Below, piece after piece: positions 2,268 through 9,693 of a stretch of 64,000 nt of DNA. Source of the stretch: Candidatus Acetatifactor stercoripullorum. Its GTDB lineage: Bacteria > Bacillota > Clostridia > Lachnospirales > Lachnospiraceae. Made by a program: the position numbers and the translations under genes. The DNA lies in NCBI GenBank assembly GCA_019114005.1, contig DXGH01000050.1:23119-87118 (forward strand), in the 5' to 3' direction. Under the pieces are notes generated by a model, which had not been told where the DNA came from, searched no databases, and saw only the letters and a program-made list of their open reading frames with translations. Each line of letters opens with the position of its first letter. Positions within the stretch are counted from its first letter, which is position 1.

Positions 2268-2350
2268 ATTTAATTGCAGTCCGTTGATTTATATGCTATG
2301 CTAATTAAGCACACAATTTTAAAATAGTGCGTGCAGAAAGTTGGTGCATC

Positions 2351-2956
2351 TTGAATAAGATAGAAATTGTTCAAAATATAATTCAAAAATCAGGAGGAAT
2401 TGCAAAAACTTCTGATTTTATTTTGGCAGGGCTTAAAAATTATGATGTGGCAAAACTTTGTAAGGAAGGAGTTATAGAACGTATAAGACATGGTTATTAT
2501 CAACTTCCAAAAAGTAAAGATATAACCGATGAACAACTAATTGCAACACTGCTTCCACAGGGGGTTATTTGTGTCGAATCTGCATTGTTTCATTATGGCT
2601 ATAGTGACTTTGCTCCCCGTGAATGGTCCATTGCAATCCCTCGATCTATGTCAAGAACAGTAAGGCGGATGCAGGAAATTTCAATGAAAGCTTATTATAT
2701 TCAAAAAGAATATATGGAACTTGGAAAAACAGTTGAAAATTTTAATGGCGTAGCTCTTCCGGTATATGACAGAGAACGCACCATATGCGACTGTTTTAAA
2801 TATCGCACAAAGCTAGACAATGAGCTGTTTAATAAAGCGCTTAACGCTTATGCCTCTGATGAAAAGAAGAATTTAAGCAACCTTTCAAAGTATGCAAAAA
2901 GAATGCGGCTGTATGCAAAAGTCATGAATGTAATGGAGGTGTTGTTAAATGGTTGA
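2351..2956 (+). CDS. AbiEi-type antitoxin (type IV toxin-antitoxin family)
   Basis: About 200 residues. The N-terminal third looks like the winged-helix AbiEi antitoxin domain (IVQNIIQKSGGIAKTSDFILAG, then a GVIERIRHGYYQL wing), followed by the conserved ALFHYGYSDFAP region. AbiEi proteins are DNA-binding repressors that neutralise the AbiEii nucleotidyltransferase toxin. The TTG at 2351 gives the family-like start MNKIE; a GTG at 2327 in the same frame is the alternative, and neither has a strong ribosome binding site. The gene overlaps the start of a severely shortened toxin remnant, so it is probably an orphan antitoxin. AT-rich codon use sets it apart from the core genes. Confidence 0.8.
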   Translation: MNKIEIVQNIIQKSGGIAKTSDFILAGLKNYDVAKLCKEGVIERIRHGYYQLPKSKDITDEQLIATLLPQGVICVESALFHYGYSDFAPREWSIAIPRSMSRTVRRMQEISMKAYYIQKEYMELGKTVENFNGVALPVYDRERTICDCFKYRTKLDNELFNKALNAYASDEKKNLSNLSKYAKRMRLYAKVMNVMEVLLNG

Positions 2957-3074
2957 TATGGGAGCATCCGTGCTAAAAACAATAAAAACCTTTTTGACAA
3001 AACCGTTTATGGCAGTAGTAAATGAAAAAGAGTTTGTTGGGAAATGGTCTGCTATTAACAGCGAGTGGATGTAA
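2949..3074 (+). pseudogene. Remnant of an AbiEii nucleotidyltransferase toxin
   Basis: A 41-residue frame starts at ATG 2949, overlapping the last codons of the antitoxin in the normal AbiEi/AbiEii coupling. Its first nine residues (MVDMGASVL) match how AbiEii toxins of this group begin, from memory of the family. Typical toxins are 250-300 residues with a GG[ST]-type nucleotidyltransferase core; none of that is present. The rest (ending VGKWSAINSEWM) may be the toxin's extreme C-terminus, which would mean a large in-frame internal deletion. That last point is inference. Confidence 0.55.
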
Positions 3075-3154
3075 AGAAAGTGCAGGAGAAGTATTGTCTT
3101 TTTAGCGACCATACATCTTTTTCCCCGGATACGGTACAATAAATACAAATAAAA

Positions 3155-3206
3155 GCAAAAAAGCAAGATGCAACAGTTTACACAAATTGTTGCATCTTGT
3201 TTTTTA
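3155..3206. terminator. Strong bidirectional terminator containing the left inverted repeat
   Basis: CAAGATGCAACA (3164-3175) pairs perfectly with TGTTGCATCTTG (3188-3199). On the plus strand it is followed by a run of seven T (3200-3206); on the minus strand it is followed by CTTTTTTGCTTTT. On the minus strand it lies about 15 nt beyond the sigma-28 promoter at 3241-3215, so transcription from that promoter in the present orientation should stop here. Confidence 0.75.
3168..3196 (+). repeat. Left inverted repeat of the putative invertible segment
   Basis: The reverse complement of this 29-bp site matches 4062-4090 at 26 positions, including the asymmetric core TTTGTGTAAA. Read in direct orientation the match is only 23 of 29, so the pair is best described as inverted. 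Each copy is itself an imperfect palindrome with ATGCAACA-like arms around the core, as expected for a tyrosine-recombinase crossover site. Confidence 0.75.
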
Positions 3207-3214
3207 CATTAAGT

Positions 3215-3241
3215 ATATCGGTAAGTATCTATAAAACTTTA
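3215..3241 (-). promoter_or_regulatory. Sigma-28 (SigD/FliA) promoter, pointing left
   Basis: On the minus strand the -35 element TAAAGTTT (3241-3234) is followed by 11 nt and the -10 element ACCGATAT (3222-3215). The flagellar sigma-28 consensus is TAAAGTTT-N11-GCCGATAA, so only the two outer -10 positions differ. It lies between the end of the recombinase gene and the left inverted repeat. No csrA or flagellin gene lies downstream in this orientation. Confidence 0.8.
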
Positions 3242-3359
3242 GTCTTTTTTAAATTTTCTTTTTTCTAATGGCTCTATTATTTTTTCCCATGTTAAAAGAC
3301 CGCCGACAGAAAGACCGCGGTAAAAAGACAATATTTATATGGACAAAGGACGAAGGTTC

Positions 3360-3947
3360 CTACAAGGTGGTTTCCCGCAGCACGGCGTCCTTGTCGTCCT
3401 GTTCCAGGCAGAGATAGCGTTTTGTGATATTTAGAGAAGAATGATTAAACAGCACCATGATGACAATAGGATCCTTCCCTTGTTTCCAGGCATGGTAGCC
3501 GAAGGTTTTGCGCAGGGAGTGACAGCTGACAGTATCCTCAATGCCGACTCCATCCGCTGCCGCACTGATAATGCGGTATGCCTGAAAACGGGAAAGCGGC
3601 TGTCCTTCAGAGCGTGGACTGGGGAACAGATACGGATTTCCGGACTTATACATCCTTGTTTTGATCAGGACCTTACGGTATGCGGCAAGCATCTGACGGA
3701 CACGGTCATTGAGAAAAATACGGTTTTCCTTGCCTGTTTTCCGCTCCCTGATTGTAATATGGGTCCTTACTTTTTTCCCGTTGTAGACGTTTTCGAGGGT
3801 AAGATGCAGGATATCGCTGATACGCAGTGCAGTGTTTAATCCCAGTATAATCAATGCGTAATTACGATAATCAGGTCTTTTGGTTTTGTAGTATTCCTTG
3901 AACTGCTCTAATTGCTTTCTGTCTCTGATTGGCTGTGTTGTACTCAT
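3360..3947 (-). CDS. Small tyrosine recombinase (FimB/FimE-sized), probable DNA invertase
   Basis: A 195-residue tyrosine recombinase that is essentially only the catalytic domain. The full set of active-site residues is visible: Arg42 (ALRISD), Lys70 (RERKTGK), His143 and Arg146 (CHSLRKTFG), His169 (FNHSS) and the nucleophile Tyr178 (KRYLCLE). The usual N-terminal SAM-like domain of phage integrases is reduced to about 30 residues, as in the fimbrial invertases. The ATG at 3947 is chosen over upstream in-frame codons because it follows AAGGGGAAAAG and gives the compact family start. It lies within the repeat-bounded segment, transcribed away from csrA. Nothing else of a prophage or integrative element is nearby. 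Confidence 0.88.
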   Translation of the reverse strand: MSTTQPIRDRKQLEQFKEYYKTKRPDYRNYALIILGLNTALRISDILHLTLENVYNGKKVRTHITIRERKTGKENRIFLNDRVRQMLAAYRKVLIKTRMYKSGNPYLFPSPRSEGQPLSRFQAYRIISAAADGVGIEDTVSCHSLRKTFGYHAWKQGKDPIVIMVLFNHSSLNITKRYLCLEQDDKDAVLRETTL

Positions 3948-4061
3948 ATTTCTTTTCCCCTTCCCTGAATCCGGCATGAGTGCCGCTCCTTCGGCTCCGA
4001 AGCACCCGGACCAAAGCCCGTGAAATGTGCTTATCTTGAGAGTAATAGAAGCCGGGGGCAA

Positions 4062-4090
4062 ATGCAACAGTTTGTGTAAAGTGTTGTATC
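4062..4090 (+). repeat. Right inverted repeat of the putative invertible segment
   Basis: Partner of 3168-3196 (26 of 29 identical when one copy is reversed). Its right arm is degenerate (TGTTGTATCCCG in place of TGTTGCATCTTG) and lacks a following T run, so it does not form a terminator. It ends 75 bp before the csrA start codon. Confidence 0.75.
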
Positions 4091-4165
4091 CCGGGCAGGA
4101 GCGAAAAGGTATTGTCCTGCTGGAACGAAAGACCTGCAGGCACCGAAAACAGGGAGGTTTGGGAC

Positions 4166-4339
4166 ATGTTGCGGCTTACAATGGCACAGGAAGAGTATCT
4201 GATGATCGGAGAAAACGTGAAAATCGTATTTCTGGGGGGAACCGGAAGGCATATGCGGGTGATGATAGACGCCCCCAAGGAGATTAATATCGTCAGAAGC
4301 AATGTACTTGAGAAAAATAAAAAGCAGTCTCAAGAGTGA
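4166..4339 (+). CDS. csrA: Carbon storage regulator CsrA
   Basis: A 57-residue protein with the CsrA pattern: MLRLTMAQEEYLMIGENV, a central VFLGGTGRHMRVMIDAPKEI and the RNA-binding Arg44 in NIVRSNV. CsrA dimers bind GGA motifs in mRNA leaders; in Bacillus they block flagellin translation and are antagonised by FliW. The ATG at 4166 is supported by AGGGAGG eight bases upstream; a longer in-frame extension upstream has no family similarity. It sits 135 bp before the flagellin start on the same strand, the classic csrA-hag neighbourhood, but no fliW is seen. No convincing promoter lies between the right inverted repeat and the gene, so it may depend on the invertible promoter. Confidence 0.92.
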   Translation: MLRLTMAQEEYLMIGENVKIVFLGGTGRHMRVMIDAPKEINIVRSNVLEKNKKQSQE

Positions 4340-4349
4340 ATCAGGTAAT

Positions 4350-4406
4350 AACCGGATGAGAAGGCAAGGCGGTCAGGGCCCGGCGGCGGAGCGGACACAT
4401 CCGGTT
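4350..4406 (+). promoter_or_regulatory. Leader stem-loop upstream of flagellin
   Basis: AACCGGATG (4350-4358) pairs with CATCCGGTT (4398-4406), enclosing a GC-rich 39-nt loop containing GGCGG, GGGCC and a GGA. It lies in the csrA-flagellin intergenic region and may be a processing site, attenuator or auxiliary CsrA contact; the sequence alone does not decide. Confidence 0.45.
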
Positions 4407-4429
4407 GCTACATAAAACAAGCAGCCATA

Positions 4430-4466
4430 GGCGCAAACGGATTTGCGCCAGGTAAAACCAAGGAGG
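4430..4466 (+). promoter_or_regulatory. CsrA-binding hairpin plus Shine-Dalgarno of flagellin
   Basis: GGCGCAA (4430-4436) pairs with TTGCGCC (4443-4449), presenting the hexaloop ACGGAU with GGA at the top. The Shine-Dalgarno AAGGAGG (4460-4466) supplies a second GGA about 20 nt downstream, before ATG 4475. One GGA in a hairpin loop and one in the ribosome binding site is the known two-site layout for CsrA repression of hag in Bacillus. Binding is inferred. Confidence 0.75.
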
Positions 4467-4474
4467 TAAATTTT

Positions 4475-5965
4475 ATGGTAGTACAACACAATTTAACAGC
4501 GATGAATTCCAACAGAATGCTGGGGCTGACAATGTCATCTCAGGCAAAATCCACCGAGAAGCTCTCTTCCGGCTATAAGATCAACCGTGCGGCAGACGAC
4601 GCGGCAGGACTTTCCATTTCCGAGAAGATGAGAAAGCAGATCAGAGGTCTGACTCAGGCTTCCCTGAATGCACAGGATGGCATTTCCGCAGTGCAGACCG
4701 CAGAGGGCGCGCTGACAGAAGTGCACGACATGCTTCAGAGAATGAACGAGCTGGCAGTGAAGGCGGCAAACGGCACCAACAGCGAGGATGACAGACAGTA
4801 TATTCAGGATGAGATTAATCAGCTGATTACAGAGATTGACCGCGTGGCGGAAACCACCAAATTCAATGAGACCTATCTTCTCAAGGGTAATGGCTCTTCG
4901 GTAGGAGATGAGATTACTCCCACTATCAAGAATGCCGGAGCATTGACAGCATTGACACCAACGTTGGTACAAGCAGAAGCAGACGTTTATACCACCGGAG
5001 CATTGGCAGGTACAATAACTGCCGGAGATGCAGTATATACAGTGGAGTATATGGATAAGAACGGCAATGTGAAGACCAAGGATATTGCCTTCACAACCAC
5101 AACTGCAGCAAATACTACGGCAGATGCTTTCATTGCTGCCGCAAATGGAGACGCTGACCTGGGAGCACTTTTTGATGTGGATGGTGATAATACCGGAATT
5201 ACATTTACCGCCAGAACAGCAGGCGCAGATCAGGGACGTGTACTGAGCGTAACTGTGAAAAGTGGTTCAGGTTCTACTCTCGATCCAGGCACCAGAACCA
5301 CGACGGGAGCAGACGCTTATAACACATATGATTTATCCGATGCTGTAGATGGAGACGGAGATACCATTACTATCGGTGATAAGACTTATACTTGGGGAAA
5401 CGTTGCCCATGCCAGCAATGGAGTTTATAATGACTTTGCTACTTTACAGGAGTTAGCAGCGGCAGATGGTTATATCATTAGCGGTACTGAAGATGCAGCG
5501 ACCATCCGTACCGAATCCTCTGCATTGGATTTGAGCCTTCATGTAGGAGCGGACAGTACGGATGAGAATCAGATTTCTCTGCAGATTGACGCGATGGATG
5601 CTACCAGCCTTGGTCTGAAGACGGGCAGCATGGAGATTGACGGCGAGTCTGTGAAGACCCTCTTAGTAAATGGAAGCGATGATGCCAATGCAAGGGCAGC
5701 CATCGACACCATTTCCGCAGCGATCCAGAAGGTATCTACCCAGCGTTCCGCTCTCGGTGCAGTACAGAACCGTCTGGAGCACACCATCAACAACCTTGAC
5801 AACGTTGTGGAAAATACCACTGCAGCAGAGAGCCAGATTCGTGATACGGATATGGCTACCGAGATGGTGAAATACTCCAACAACCAGATTCTTGCACAGG
5901 CAGGCCAGGCAATGCTGGCACAGGCAAATCAGGCAAACCAGGGCGTTCTGTCGCTGTTAAGCTAA
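4475..5965 (+). CDS. hag: Flagellin
   Basis: A 496-residue flagellin, the filament subunit exported by the flagellar type III apparatus. The conserved N-terminal D0/D1 coiled-coil covers about residues 1-140 (MVVQHNLTAMNSNRML, KLSSGYKINRAADDAAG, QDGISAVQTAEGAL) and the C-terminal D1/D0 about 405-496 (RLEHTINNLDNVVENTTAAE, ending GVLSLLS). The middle 250 residues are Thr/Ala/Asp-rich and variable, the surface-exposed part. The start follows a strong AAGGAGG. It is preceded by csrA and a CsrA-type leader hairpin and followed by a hairpin terminator. No other flagellar genes are in the window. Transcription is probably set by the invertible sigma-28 promoter upstream. Confidence 0.96.
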   Translation: MVVQHNLTAMNSNRMLGLTMSSQAKSTEKLSSGYKINRAADDAAGLSISEKMRKQIRGLTQASLNAQDGISAVQTAEGALTEVHDMLQRMNELAVKAANGTNSEDDRQYIQDEINQLITEIDRVAETTKFNETYLLKGNGSSVGDEITPTIKNAGALTALTPTLVQAEADVYTTGALAGTITAGDAVYTVEYMDKNGNVKTKDIAFTTTTAANTTADAFIAAANGDADLGALFDVDGDNTGITFTARTAGADQGRVLSVTVKSGSGSTLDPGTRTTTGADAYNTYDLSDAVDGDGDTITIGDKTYTWGNVAHASNGVYNDFATLQELAAADGYIISGTEDAATIRTESSALDLSLHVGADSTDENQISLQIDAMDATSLGLKTGSMEIDGESVKTLLVNGSDDANARAAIDTISAAIQKVSTQRSALGAVQNRLEHTINNLDNVVENTTAAESQIRDTDMATEMVKYSNNQILAQAGQAMLAQANQANQGVLSLLS

Positions 5966-6680: not shown

Positions 6681-7139
6681 AATTATTATATGGAACAAGT
6701 AATCAGGCAAAATTATCCGTAATGAAAAGCAGGCTTGAAAAACTAGGCGTAGAGCTGATTGGCTTGAGTGATTTAAAGGCAGAAGGAATTACAATTCCGG
6801 AAGTGCCGGAGAAGGGAAATACACCGCTTGAAAATGCGAGGCAGAAAGCGACCGCCTATTATAAGGCCTTTCAAATGCCGGTGTTTTCCTGTGATTCGGG
6901 ACTGTATTTTGATAATGTTCCAGACGGGGTTCAGCCAGGGGTGCATGTGCGCAACGTGAATGGAAAATGTTTATCCGATGCAGAAATGATAGAATATTAT
7001 GCAGGTCTTGTAAGACAGTATGGCAACCTTGCTGCACGGTATAAAAATGCAATTTGCTTTACCCCATAGTGCAGTAAGAAAAAAGGGATTTCCGCTGGAC
7101 AGTATGTCGATTGATAGAAAATTTTTGAGAAGGTTTTAG
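6677..7139 (+). pseudogene. Ham1/RdgB-like nucleotide pyrophosphatase, broken by an internal deletion
   Basis: The first 128 residues are a good N-terminal two-thirds of a non-canonical purine NTP pyrophosphatase (YGTSNQAKLSVMKSRL, PLENARQKATAYYKA, FSCDSGLYFD, QPGVHVRNVNGK). The frame stops at 7069. In a shifted frame from about 7062 the family's C-terminal motif appears (PHSAVRKKGFPLDSMSI) and ends at TAG 7137-7139. Roughly 40 codons between the two blocks are missing, so this is an internal deletion with a frameshift. These enzymes hydrolyse dITP and XTP to keep them out of DNA. ATG 6677 overlaps the upstream gene (ATGA). Confidence 0.8.
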
Positions 7140-7162
7140 ATTTGAGCTTGGAGTGTGGTTGT

Positions 7163-7609
7163 GTGGAAGTGCAATTTGGAAAAAATAGTGATATAGATGA
7201 GTGGATGAAGCTTGTTACAGAAATCAGCTGGAATTTTCCGGGATTAGAGACGAAAGAAAAAATAGAGGAACATCGGGAAACTGTTTTACGCTTTATAAGC
7301 AAAGAACAGGCTTTGTGTGTGAAAGACGGTGCAAAAATAATAGGGGTTCTTTTGTTTTCAAGAGAACATAATATGATTTGCTGTTTAGGTGTTTCACCCC
7401 GCTGCAGAAGAAGAGGAATCGCTTCCGGTTTATTAGTAAAGGCATTAGATAATCTGGATAGAACAAAAGACATTACAGTATCAACTTTTCGAGAAGAAGA
7501 TGAAAAAGGGCTTGCTCCAAGGGCTTTCTACAAAAAATATGGTTTTGTGGAAGATGAACCAATGGAAGAATTTGGATATCCCAGTCAAAAGTTTATACTA
7601 CACCCATAA
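7163..7609 (+). CDS. GNAT-family N-acetyltransferase
   Basis: About 148 residues with a GNAT fold: acidic N-terminal helices, then the acetyl-CoA loop in LGVSPRCRRRGIASGLL (R/Q-x-x-G-x-G/A motif) and the C-terminal FYKKYGFVEDE. The substrate is unknown. GTG 7163 is chosen because GGAG lies ten bases upstream and the protein then begins MEVQFGKNSDIDEW; an upstream TTG at 7142 is possible. It follows the Ham1 pseudogene closely and precedes a second GNAT gene that is not closely similar. AT-rich like the rest of this accessory stretch. Confidence 0.8.
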   Translation: MEVQFGKNSDIDEWMKLVTEISWNFPGLETKEKIEEHRETVLRFISKEQALCVKDGAKIIGVLLFSREHNMICCLGVSPRCRRRGIASGLLVKALDNLDRTKDITVSTFREEDEKGLAPRAFYKKYGFVEDEPMEEFGYPSQKFILHP

Positions 7610-7692
7610 ATTCTAAAAACAGCTGAACACAGGCAGGAGTATTTGGCTGAATTTGTGGCGGAGTGGGAAGGAGCAAGGTGATATTATTGGAG

Positions 7693-8166
7693 ATGATGAA
7701 AAAATATGAGTATAGAAAAGCGACACAGGCAGATATTGAAGAATTGGTAAAAACAAGAATGATTGTCCTCCGTGCGGCGAATAAGCTGTCAGATGCTGTG
7801 GATATGTCCGAGGTGGAACAGGAATCTTATGTATATTATAAACGGGCGTTGGAAACTGGCGGGCACATAGCATATCTGGTATATGATAATGGAAAATTTA
7901 TTGGTGCAGGGGGTGTGAGCTTTTATCAGGTTATGCCAACCTATCATAATCCCAGTGGGAAAAAGGCTTATATTATGAATATGTATACTGCACCGGAATA
8001 TCGAAGACAAGGAATTGCATTTTGCACATTGGATTTATTAGTGAAAGACGTGAAGGAACAGGGCGTCACACAGATTGCGTTAGAGGCAACGGATATGGGG
8101 CGGCCATTGTATGAGAAATACGGATTTGTAAAAATGGAAGAGGAAATGTTTTTCCCCGGTCCCTAA
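7693..8166 (+). CDS. GNAT-family N-acetyltransferase
   Basis: About 157 residues: GNAT acetyltransferase with the acetyl-CoA signature in MYTAPEYRRQGIAFCTLDLL and the terminal PLYEKYGFVKMEEEMFF. The start is uncertain between ATG 7693, ATG 7696 and an upstream GTG at 7663. The 50 bp upstream read as open protein (AEHRQEYLAEFVAEWEGAR) in another frame, possibly the tail of a deleted gene. The stop codon lies inside the first copy of a 23-bp direct repeat that reappears 1.5 kb downstream. Substrate unknown. Confidence 0.8.
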   Translation: MMKKYEYRKATQADIEELVKTRMIVLRAANKLSDAVDMSEVEQESYVYYKRALETGGHIAYLVYDNGKFIGAGGVSFYQVMPTYHNPSGKKAYIMNMYTAPEYRRQGIAFCTLDLLVKDVKEQGVTQIALEATDMGRPLYEKYGFVKMEEEMFFPGP

Positions 8167-8335: not shown

Positions 8336-8578
8336 ATGCAGGCAATGCCAAGAGGAAAAGACCAATTTACGCAAGGAGAGAAGTTTCATGAGGCAACCGA
8401 TTTTTATGCGTGGAAAGGCTATGATTTCGATATACTGAACGAGCTGGATGATGCGGACTATATCCGGCAAGGAAATCATCCATCCCGTTCCAGGTCGGTA
8501 TATATTACGGAAAGCGGCATTGGGCAGGCGAAAGAGCTTTTAGCCAAGTACGGTATAAACGATTGGAAACAGGGGTGA
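8336..8578 (+). CDS. DUF6429-like small protein, possibly N-terminally altered
   Basis: An 80-residue protein whose C-terminal half resembles small winged-helix-like proteins I recall as DUF6429 (AWKGYDFDILNELDDADYI, SVYITESGIGQAKELL, KYGINDW). Family members usually begin with a longer helix before AWKGYDFD; here the first 25 residues look unrelated, suggesting a remodelled or truncated N-terminus. It lies first inside the 1.5 kb repeat-bounded cassette. No function is known to me. The ATG start has no clear ribosome binding site. Confidence 0.5.
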   Translation: MQAMPRGKDQFTQGEKFHEATDFYAWKGYDFDILNELDDADYIRQGNHPSRSRSVYITESGIGQAKELLAKYGINDWKQG

Positions 8579-8620
8579 GAAAAGGATTGTTCACTATCTA
8601 CTGGAGAAAGGTGGAAAAAT

Positions 8621-9271
8621 ATGTTATTGTATCATGGTTCAAAAAGTGGAATACAAGGAGACATTAAGCCTGAAAGCAGGATGTCATGTGACTTCGGCTG
8701 CGGATTTTATATGGGAGATAAGCCAGACCAGCCAAAGGGCTTGATTGCATCATATGAAAATAACAAGTTTTACGAGATAGAGTACAATTCAGATGGATTA
8801 AAAATAAAAACATTTGAAGATAATTATGTAGATCAGATCGATTGGGCACTATTCATTGCATACAATAGACAACCAGAAAAATTAGCAGAATACGACCAGC
8901 TATGCAAGAGGTATAAGGCATATAATGAATTATATGATATGATTGTTGGCGTAATTGCAGATGATAAAATGACACAGGTAATGCAATTATTTTTTAATGG
9001 ACAGATGTGTGACAAGGCATTTATTGAGGCAATGAGGTATGTAAAGTTAGGCAGGCAGTATGTATTAAAAACATATGAAGCATACAGTAAATGGCGTTTT
9101 AATGTCATAAAAGAATATAAACTCACAGATGCTGATAAAAAATTAATCATATCACAGAATATAAATAGAACGAACCAGTTAAGTACTATGATAAACCAAA
9201 TTCAGACTAAATATAGACGAGCGCAAGATGTGAAATTCTTCGATGAAATAATAGAGGAGTGGAATAAATAA
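8621..9271 (+). CDS. DUF3990-family protein (toxin-like ADP-ribosyltransferase-related fold suspected)
   Basis: A 216-residue protein. The N-terminus (LLYHGSKSGIQGDIKPESR, then CDFGCGFYMGDKPDQ) matches the family I know as DUF3990, whose YHGS...FG.GFY pattern resembles the NAD-binding strands of ADP-ribosyltransferases; the family is often found with small partner genes in toxin-antitoxin-like pairs. DWALFIAYNR and IVGVIADDKM are further family-like blocks. ATG 8621 has AAAGGTGG upstream. The stop overlaps the next start as TAATG, implying translational coupling. Catalysis and toxicity are inferred. Very AT-rich relative to the core genome. Confidence 0.65.
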   Translation: MLLYHGSKSGIQGDIKPESRMSCDFGCGFYMGDKPDQPKGLIASYENNKFYEIEYNSDGLKIKTFEDNYVDQIDWALFIAYNRQPEKLAEYDQLCKRYKAYNELYDMIVGVIADDKMTQVMQLFFNGQMCDKAFIEAMRYVKLGRQYVLKTYEAYSKWRFNVIKEYKLTDADKKLIISQNINRTNQLSTMINQIQTKYRRAQDVKFFDEIIEEWNK

Positions 9272-9693
9272 TGGATGCAACAACTTTTAACATTGGGATA
9301 TGCGAAATGTCAGCAGATTTATTTGTACTGTCTGTTAAAAGAGGTTACGATTCAAAGGATTTTATAGAAAAATTAATGAAATCAGAGACTGCAACACATT
9401 TATATAATAAGACGGATACGCAGATGTGGTTAGGCTCAAATTATATAATGGAAACCCTGGAACAAGAGGTACAGATTAAAAAAGGAGAGATATATCCAGA
9501 AGATTTAATGTCATGGATAGGATATTTATTTGCCTGCTGGAATTTCACATATGCTGACGATACACCAAAAGATATGATAAAACAGGCGCCAGTAGAAGTC
9601 TTGATACTGGCATATCAAGGGCTGCACGTGTTATCATTTGAAGATGCAATCAGGGAGTTGAAAAACATATACAAAGAAAAGCGGAAAAAATAA
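9271..9693 (+). CDS. Unknown protein coupled to the DUF3990 gene (candidate partner)
   Basis: A 140-residue protein of no family I can name with confidence. Its first half (ICEMSADLFVLSVKRGYDSKDFIEKLMKSE) recalls the small DUF3791-type proteins that accompany DUF3990 genes; the second half (EDLMSWIGYLFACWNFTY, then an ILAYQGLHVLSFEDAIREL helix) is predicted helical, ending in a basic tail. The start codon shares one base with the upstream stop, so the two are translated together. By position it is the antitoxin or partner of the DUF3990 protein. It ends nine bases before the right copy of the 23-bp repeat. Confidence 0.5.
   Translation: MDATTFNIGICEMSADLFVLSVKRGYDSKDFIEKLMKSETATHLYNKTDTQMWLGSNYIMETLEQEVQIKKGEIYPEDLMSWIGYLFACWNFTYADDTPKDMIKQAPVEVLILAYQGLHVLSFEDAIRELKNIYKEKRKK

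What the first reader, a model, noticed from the sequence alone, without database searches (positions are those of the whole stretch)
3168..4090. Putative recombinase-carried invertible switch in front of csrA-flagellin
Seen: two 29-bp sites in inverted orientation (26/29 identical when one is reversed, 23/29 direct) bound a 0.9 kb segment with one 195-residue tyrosine recombinase carrying all catalytic residues and little else. csrA and flagellin start just outside. Known: FimB/FimE-like enzymes of this size invert promoter segments, and flagellar phase variation by DNA inversion is known in other clostridia. Inference: this is a self-contained flagellin phase switch. The asymmetric core TTTGTGTAAA at each site would fix orientation.
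Basis: partly seen in the sequence, partly recalled or inferred. Interest (0 to 1): 0.95.

Follow-up and report, generated by a model that had tools for sequence, protein, structure and literature searches.

The report
Self-flipping SigD promoter cassette for flagellin
A gut bacterium of the Lachnospiraceae carries, just in front of a flagellin operon, a 0.9-kb DNA cassette that holds its own recombinase gene and a SigD-type promoter sequence between two inverted recombination-like sites; it likely flips to turn that flagellin on or off, and relatives carry the same cassette in both orientations.

Summary
The two sites (3167-3195, 4062-4090) match 26/29 inverted; 100 shuffles reach at most 22. 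Each is a palindrome around an asymmetric centre. The segment also carries a SigD (sigma-28) type promoter, 19 nt inside the csrA-distal site and pointing away from csrA-flagellin. As assembled the switch is predicted OFF, the promoter facing a hairpin plus U-tract.

Of 147 distinct related recombinase units, 117 have such a site pair, and 115 of these have an outward SigD-type site at one end. Site centres match better inverted in 104 of 105 pairs chosen on arms alone. Of 110 single-flagellin units 106 are OFF and 4 ON; against their two nearest OFF relatives the ON units show a collinear csrA-side flank and a reversed segment. Three units sit between two divergent flagellins. The host genome has a second switch and a flagellin with a fixed promoter.

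Flipping within this strain was not tested. The OFF excess is unexplained. Invertible promoters are known; this flagellin-level, self-contained, family-wide form was not found in ten literature searches.

The parts
3167..4090 (.). invertible segment, outer edges of the two recombination sites
   Evidence: inverted repeat pair I1; shuffle control; conserved arrangement in relatives
3167..3195 (.). csrA-distal recombination site, palindromic (GATGCAACA..TGTTGCATC around GTTTACACAAA)
4062..4090 (.). csrA-proximal recombination site, palindromic, same centre inverted
3215..3242 (-). SigD (sigma-28) type promoter, TAAA at 3241-3238, 16-nt spacer, CCGATAT at 3221-3215; points away from csrA-flagellin, so predicted OFF as assembled
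   Evidence: sequence; regex; PWM 25.4; consensus as printed in PMC3720852, general TAAA (N15) CCGATAT, Butyrivibrio fibrisolvens TAAA (N16-17) MCGATAa
3154..3206 (-). hairpin plus U-tract read from the SigD-type promoter in the OFF orientation; predicted intrinsic terminator
   Evidence: fold -19.9 kcal/mol, z -5.66; distal T-tract in 91 of 110 units; not flagged by the simple terminator scan
3360..3947 (-). 195-aa tyrosine recombinase, catalytic domain only (stop codon included)
   Evidence: Pfam PF00589; conserved residues; model pLDDT 91.8, best match XerA
4166..4339 (+). csrA, first gene of the switched operon
   Evidence: Pfam PF02599
4475..5965 (+). flagellin, 496 aa, switched gene
   Evidence: Pfam PF00669 and PF00700

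Best explanation
The 3167-4090 segment likely works as a self-contained on/off switch: its own tyrosine recombinase is predicted to invert it at two palindromic sites, so that the SigD-type promoter sequence inside would point either at csrA-flagellin (ON) or, as in this assembly, away from it into a predicted terminator (OFF). Shown by sequence: the sites, the recombinase gene, the outward promoter-like sequence, the hairpin with T-tract, the lack of such a sequence in the fixed flank, and both orientations among related genomes. Inferred: that this recombinase acts on these sites, that SigD uses the promoter, that the hairpin ends transcription, and that flipping occurs within a strain. On this model the matched spacer makes inversion the outcome and keeps each switch specific to its own site pair. 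At least one other flagellin of this genome (contig C59) has a fixed SigD-type promoter, so OFF would change filament composition rather than abolish the filament.
For: Site pair beyond chance. Of 147 distinct recombinase units, 117 have a palindromic inverted pair. PWM: outward SigD-type site at one end in 115 of 117 units, against 4 of 234 inward windows. Consensus TAAA-N15/16-CCGATA alone, without the PWM: outward in 68 of 117 units, inward in 0 of 234 windows. Fixed flank from site to csrA: 0 of 110; csrA to flagellin: 3 of 102, weak. Spacer test on all 147 units with sites chosen by arms only: 105 pairs, inverted better in 104, tie 1, direct better 0; 87 distinct centres. Between-unit control identity 0.46 against 0.94 within a unit. 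Natural inversion: ON units L083, L100, L122 and L222, each aligned with its two nearest OFF units, show the csrA-side flank plus and the segment minus; for L222 against L049 segment 78% minus, csrA flank 81% plus, distal flank 94% plus over 49 bp. Four changes on the recombinase tree. Distal site followed outward by at least 5 T in 8 in 91 of 110 units, proximal site in 9 of 110. SigD/FliA factor in the genome at 258.9 bits, cut-off 189.6. Fixed-promoter control flagellin in the same genome, L239: site scoring 26.3, 185 nt upstream, no recombinase found in the fetched stretch.
Against: 106 OFF against 4 ON is far from an even mix, so flipping may be rare or strongly biased. No two genomes of one species were available in both orientations. 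In one search the distal flank aligned clearly only for L083 and L222; for L122 only about the site itself, for L100 not at all. Contig ends, which a mixed population might place at the sites, are not enriched there: 1 of 36 contig ends within 2.5 kb of a recombinase lies within 100 nt of a site (loci L140-L168 not included); three contigs (L043; L251 and L267) do end within 50 nt of one. The simple terminator scan found nothing in 2900-4500. In 36 of 102 units the nearest distal ORF runs in the direction of the OFF promoter, 27 of them within 200 nt, so OFF need not be silent there. 30 of 147 units had no good site pair, some cut by contig ends, some distant homologues without flagellin. The 147 units are not all independent species, and the PWM was trained on the outward windows; one search is the untrained control.
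Confidence: 0.88

Rival explanations
1. The cassette is a former switch, now locked OFF: the recombinase family once inverted it, but here the flagellin is silent or driven by an unseen promoter.
For: 106 of 110 single-flagellin units are OFF. The two sites of the window differ at 3 of 29 positions.
Against: Recombinase residues conserved; the protein cluster 99% identical to it (which may include the window's own protein) stands for 22 member sequences and 8 contigs; spacer centre matches 10 of 10 inverted; csrA and flagellin frames intact.
Confidence: 0.08
2. It is a small mobile element: a solitary tyrosine recombinase with terminal inverted repeats inserted upstream of csrA-flagellin, with no regulatory role.
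For: Terminal inverted repeats flank a lone recombinase; 4 of 117 units with sites had no csrA or flagellin within 1 kb in the DNA held; the window's left flank holds an AbiEi-like gene and what looks like debris.
Against: 113 of 117 units with sites lie within 1 kb of csrA or flagellin. A SigD-type site sits at one end in 115 of 117. Site centres differ between units but match within a unit, unlike ends that mark one mobile family. Only two strong copies in this genome, both before csrA-flagellin.
Confidence: 0.03
3. The outward promoter makes a short SigD-dependent RNA ended by the hairpin, or serves a distal gene, and that is its product; the few reversed cases are accidents.
For: The -10 element is 18-20 nt from the site in 69 of 112 units and a T-tract follows in 91 of 110, so a roughly 50-nt RNA is predicted in OFF. 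In 36 of 102 units the nearest distal ORF runs the same way.
Against: The csrA-flagellin operon is left without a SigD-type site in its fixed flank (0 of 110), whereas 9 of 15 flagellin loci with neither recombinase nor csrA score 12 or more for one at 132-201 nt. Distal neighbours are not conserved (64 singletons of 101). Four reversals on the tree with the segment reversed against the csrA flank.
Confidence: 0.03

Closest known systems
Clostridioides difficile flagellar switch with RecV (PMC5386303)
   Same: Clostridial flagellar phase variation by inversion at imperfect inverted repeats, catalysed by a tyrosine recombinase.
   Different: There: 154-bp element with 21-bp repeats upstream of the early flgB operon, so sigD itself varies (passages); the recombinase also acts on other switches such as cwpV and is not inside the element. 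Here: a SigD-type promoter flips at one flagellin operon, the recombinase lies inside the segment, and another flagellin keeps a fixed promoter.
Salmonella Hin / fljBA switch
   Same: Recombinase gene inside the invertible segment, promoter flips, flagellin identity changes (recalled; start of the abstract of PMC9368917 seen).
   Different: Hin is a serine recombinase (start of abstract of PMC3798978). Here a tyrosine recombinase; no repressor gene seen next to flagellin; two-headed forms place one promoter between two divergent flagellins.
FimB/FimE fim switch of E. coli
   Same: About 200-aa tyrosine recombinase inverting a promoter segment (recalled).
   Different: Recombinase genes outside the segment there (recalled); this protein is far below the invertase model cut-offs (42.6 and 43.5 against 221 and 222 bits).
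Gut invertons (survey PMC11892184)
   Same: Invertible elements flanked by repeats; inverton group 139, 32 of 33 from Clostridia, linked to a nearby tyrosine recombinase group (section 8).
   Different: That paper's main text has no 'flagell' and no 'Lachnospir'. Whether group 139 is this system could not be checked.

Membership tests
Tyrosine recombinase superfamily | Phage_integrase domain with R-K-H-R-H-Y | tested here: met
   PF00589 90.2 bits, cut-off 27.1; residues invariant in 21 aligned sequences; model matches XerA and Cre structures
FimB/FimE-type DNA invertases (NCBIfam PRK09870, PRK09871) | score over curated cut-off | tested here: not met
   42.6 and 43.5 bits against 221 and 222
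Invertible promoter (inverton) | inverted repeats bounding a segment with a promoter sequence | tested here: met
Invertible promoter (inverton) | both orientations found among related genomes | tested here: met
   106 OFF and 4 ON; reversed segment against collinear csrA-side flank
Invertible promoter (inverton) | both orientations within one strain, in reads | not testable with these tools
   no reads held; one genome per species
C. difficile RecV flg switch | 154-bp segment upstream of flgB, recombinase not inside it | tested here: not met
   0.9 kb, upstream of csrA-flagellin, recombinase inside; comparison from passages
Hin-type switch | serine recombinase | tested here: not met
   tyrosine recombinase domain

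The most novel reading that the evidence does not exclude
Lachnospiraceae flagellins are wired as a modular antigen-switching system: csrA-linked flagellins each carry a private self-flipping SigD promoter cassette with its own spacer, so switches in one genome flip independently (four found in one genome, one ON and three OFF), two-headed versions swap one flagellin for another, and a fixed-promoter flagellin keeps the filament present. Most cells in gut and culture would hold the variable flagellins OFF.
Probability: 0.6. Interest if true: 0.85.

Novelty: new variant of a known kind. Interest (0 to 1): 0.74.

Why it matters
Lachnospiraceae flagellins are major gut antigens and TLR5 ligands (recalled). 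If csrA-linked flagellins often sit behind invertible SigD promoters, the flagellin repertoire read from genomes overstates what cells express, and assembly orientation gives a direct prediction of state that metagenomic reads can test. It may also bear on flagellin genes for which no upstream promoter could be found (reported for three Roseburia and Eubacterium genes in PMC3720852, passages), though those genes were not examined here. The matched spacers offer a natural set of mutually distinct recombination sites.

Tried and rejected
Contig-end test: I expected assembly breaks at the sites; 1 of 36 contig ends near a recombinase lay within 100 nt of a site (which left out loci L140-L168), so I do not use it as support. 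A conserved target on the distal side: nearest distal ORFs are 64 singletons of 101, largest cluster 8 (one member read by eye as ribosomal protein L17), facing the switch; 65 of 102 nearest ORFs face it, 36 read away, 1 flank had none. Sigma-70 promoter in the region: 0 found in 2900-4500. Inverted pair 3089-3107 / 3318-3336: left as probable chance, not tested. The first site finder missed the window's own pair because of a fixed width of 27; widths 26-28 were used afterwards. In one search unit L046 is counted as without promoter because the finder picked flagellin leader repeats; its promoter (26.3) is seen. The 117 units were chosen by inverted identity, so the spacer test was repeated on all 147. 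In 15 of the 117 units the promoter lies at the upstream end of the recombinase instead of the downstream end, so recombinase direction alone does not give the state; these 15 are not a clean clade.

Literature: ten searches gave no description of this switch in Lachnospiraceae; the library lacks most subscription papers and bioRxiv preprints. Jiang et al. 2019 is not held.

Full report
Observation. The two 29-nt arms at 3167-3195 and 4062-4090 match 26/29 when one is reversed, and the stretch matches 23/29 direct. The best inverted pair in 100 dinucleotide shuffles of 2500-5200 reaches 22. Each arm is also palindromic, about 9 bp each side of an asymmetric centre (TTTACACAAA left, TTTGTGTAAA right). 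That is the usual form of a tyrosine-recombinase core site (recalled knowledge). Between them lies a 195-aa recombinase on the minus strand (3363-3947), Pfam PF00589. Its R42, K70, H143, R146, H169 and Y178 are invariant in 21 aligned sequences. A model with pLDDT 91.8 matches XerA, other Xer, integron and Cre structures. It has a catalytic domain only and does not reach the cut-off of the two DNA invertase models it touches.

Just inside the left site, on the minus strand, stands CTAAAG-N14-ACCGATAT (3215-3242), that is TAAA-N16-CCGATAT. The sigma-28 consensus printed in PMC3720852 (passages seen) is TAAA (N15) CCGATAT in general and TAAA (N16-17) MCGATAa for Butyrivibrio fibrisolvens. The sequence points left, away from csrA (4166-4339) and flagellin (4475-5965), so the window is predicted to be in the OFF state. 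Leftward transcription would meet the left site as a hairpin of -19.9 kcal/mol (z -5.66) followed by U's; the simple terminator scan did not flag it. On inversion the promoter would lie about 124 nt upstream of the csrA start (coordinate arithmetic; no sequence was built). The genome encodes a SigD/FliA factor (258.9 bits, cut-off 189.6).

Relatives. The recombinase occurs in 44 of 138 genomes of the genus (E 1e-50 or better) and in 38 of 397 sampled genomes of the family (E 1e-40 or better). From 170 loci I took 147 distinct recombinase units; short or weak hits and exact duplicates were dropped. Of these, 117 had a good site pair. The other 30 include units cut by contig ends and distant homologues with no flagellin nearby.

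Promoter test. With a matrix trained on regex seeds, 115 of 117 units have an outward site at one end (right 100, left 15), against 4 of 234 inward windows. With the consensus TAAA-N15/16-CCGATA alone, 68 of 117 units have one outward and 0 of 234 inward windows do. The distance from the -10 element to the site is 18-20 nt in 69 of 112 units. The fixed stretch from site to csrA has none in 110 units, and csrA to flagellin 3 weak ones in 102. By contrast the flagellin on contig C59 of the same genome has a site scoring 26.3, 185 nt upstream, and no recombinase in the fetched stretch; two further flagellin-domain genes of this genome (contigs C13 and C32) had no clear site (0.6 and 0.7). In 8 other genomes of the genus there were 43 flagellin matches, and 30 were examined. 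The 11 with both recombinase and csrA have no fixed SigD-type site (best 1.3). Of 15 with neither, 9 score 12 or more, at 132-201 nt, and 6 score 10.2 or less. One has a recombinase nearby but no csrA (22.9). Three have csrA but no recombinase in the DNA held: L263 (below) and L251 and L267, whose contigs end at the site. A fixed-promoter flagellin was seen in 7 of the 8 genomes; in the eighth (G502) 4 of 9 matches were examined and none had one.

Spacer test. Choosing sites by their arms alone in all 147 units gave 105 pairs. The centres match better inverted in 104, tie in 1, and never better direct; mean identity is 0.94 against 0.47, with 87 distinct centres. Between units the identity is 0.46. 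Centres that differ from unit to unit yet agree within a unit are what recombination needing spacer identity would leave. Direct orientation would give excision; inverted gives inversion.

Orientation. Of 110 units with csrA or flagellin on one side, 106 are OFF and 4 ON (L083, L100, L122, L222); with the consensus only, 63 and 4. Each ON unit was aligned with its two nearest OFF units: the csrA-side flank aligns plus and the segment minus. For L222 against L049 the segment is 78% minus, the csrA flank 81% plus and the distal flank 94% plus over 49 bp, and the alignments change direction in the sites. The distal flank also aligned plus for L083 (70% over 94 bp), only around the site for L122, and not at all for L100. 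Parsimony needs four changes on the recombinase tree. In the genome of L222 (G499) four units were found, one ON and three OFF. These are between-species comparisons; no same-species pair was available.

Terminator. Outside the distal site at least 5 of 8 bases are T, read outward, in 91 of 110 units, against 9 of 110 outside the proximal site. The distal neighbours are not conserved (64 singletons of 101), and 65 of 102 nearest distal ORFs face the switch; 36 read away from it, 27 of these within 200 nt. So OFF looks like a dead end in most units, but the OFF promoter could reach a neighbour in some if termination leaks.

Variants. L133 (E. xylanophilum), L046 and L042 lie between two divergent flagellins that agree 87-91% at the N end and 89-91% at the C end but only 33-69% in the middle; there the same flip would swap flagellins. 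L263 (G502) is a 260-bp segment with two sites (26/29 inverted) and an outward promoter (26.3) but no recombinase in the DNA held, so it would need one acting from elsewhere. L123 has the cassette between two exported-looking proteins rather than flagellins (read by eye). The window's genome holds a second switch on contig C47 (L039; recombinase 59% identical), also OFF, with a different spacer; the two switched flagellins are 89% alike at the N end and 28% in the middle.

Reading. The best account is a self-contained phase switch for a csrA-flagellin operon. Shown: anatomy, conservation, spacer matching, both orientations among relatives. Inferred: catalysis by the resident enzyme, SigD use, termination, and live flipping in this strain. 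Against it stand the 106:4 skew, the absence of any within-strain evidence, and contig ends that are not enriched at the sites (1 of 36 within 100 nt). A biased recombinase, or selection against these flagellins in gut and culture, would give the skew; neither was tested.

Known systems. C. difficile flips a 154-bp element upstream of flgB with RecV (PMC5386303, passages). Salmonella Hin is a serine recombinase (start of an abstract). A 2025 survey of gut invertons links a Clostridia inverton group to a nearby tyrosine recombinase (PMC11892184, passages and section 8) without the word stem 'flagell' in its main text. Ten searches found no description of this system (listed under Tried and rejected). 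I rate it a new variant of a known kind.

Noticed in passing
L039 6064-8616 (G000 contig C47): Second flagellin switch in the same genome, 2.5 kb, OFF, with a different spacer and an extra 326-aa open frame (6762-7742) inside the segment.
   Followed up: partly
the 110 single-flagellin units: Strong excess of OFF orientation, 106 to 4, unexplained.
   Followed up: partly
L263 2489-2748: 260-bp switch with sites and SigD-type promoter but no recombinase in the DNA held, upstream of csrA-flagellin.
   Followed up: partly
L123 5894-6683: The same cassette between two divergent exported-looking, repeat-bearing proteins (759 and 582 aa) instead of flagellins.
   Followed up: partly
G457 contig C2, 241668-273572 (L090, L203): Eleven flagellin N-domain matches in about 32 kb, with three recombinase switches of different spacers and some fixed-promoter copies.
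   Followed up: partly
L239 3064-3885 (G000 contig C59): A 275-aa flagellin with a short middle region and a fixed SigD-type promoter; short fixed flagellins (269-274 aa) also occur in G006, G015 and G517.
   Followed up: partly
L251 and L267 csrA-side contig ends: Two csrA-flagellin contigs end at or within a few bases of the recombination site, as a mixed population might cause; not a general trend.
   Followed up: yes
window 2327-2956 and 2950-3074: AbiEi-type antitoxin-like gene followed by what looks like a truncated partner frame, facing the switch.
   Followed up: no
window 8336-9693: DUF3990 gene (8621-9271) between two small open frames, possibly a small gene pair or trio of unknown role.
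   Followed up: no
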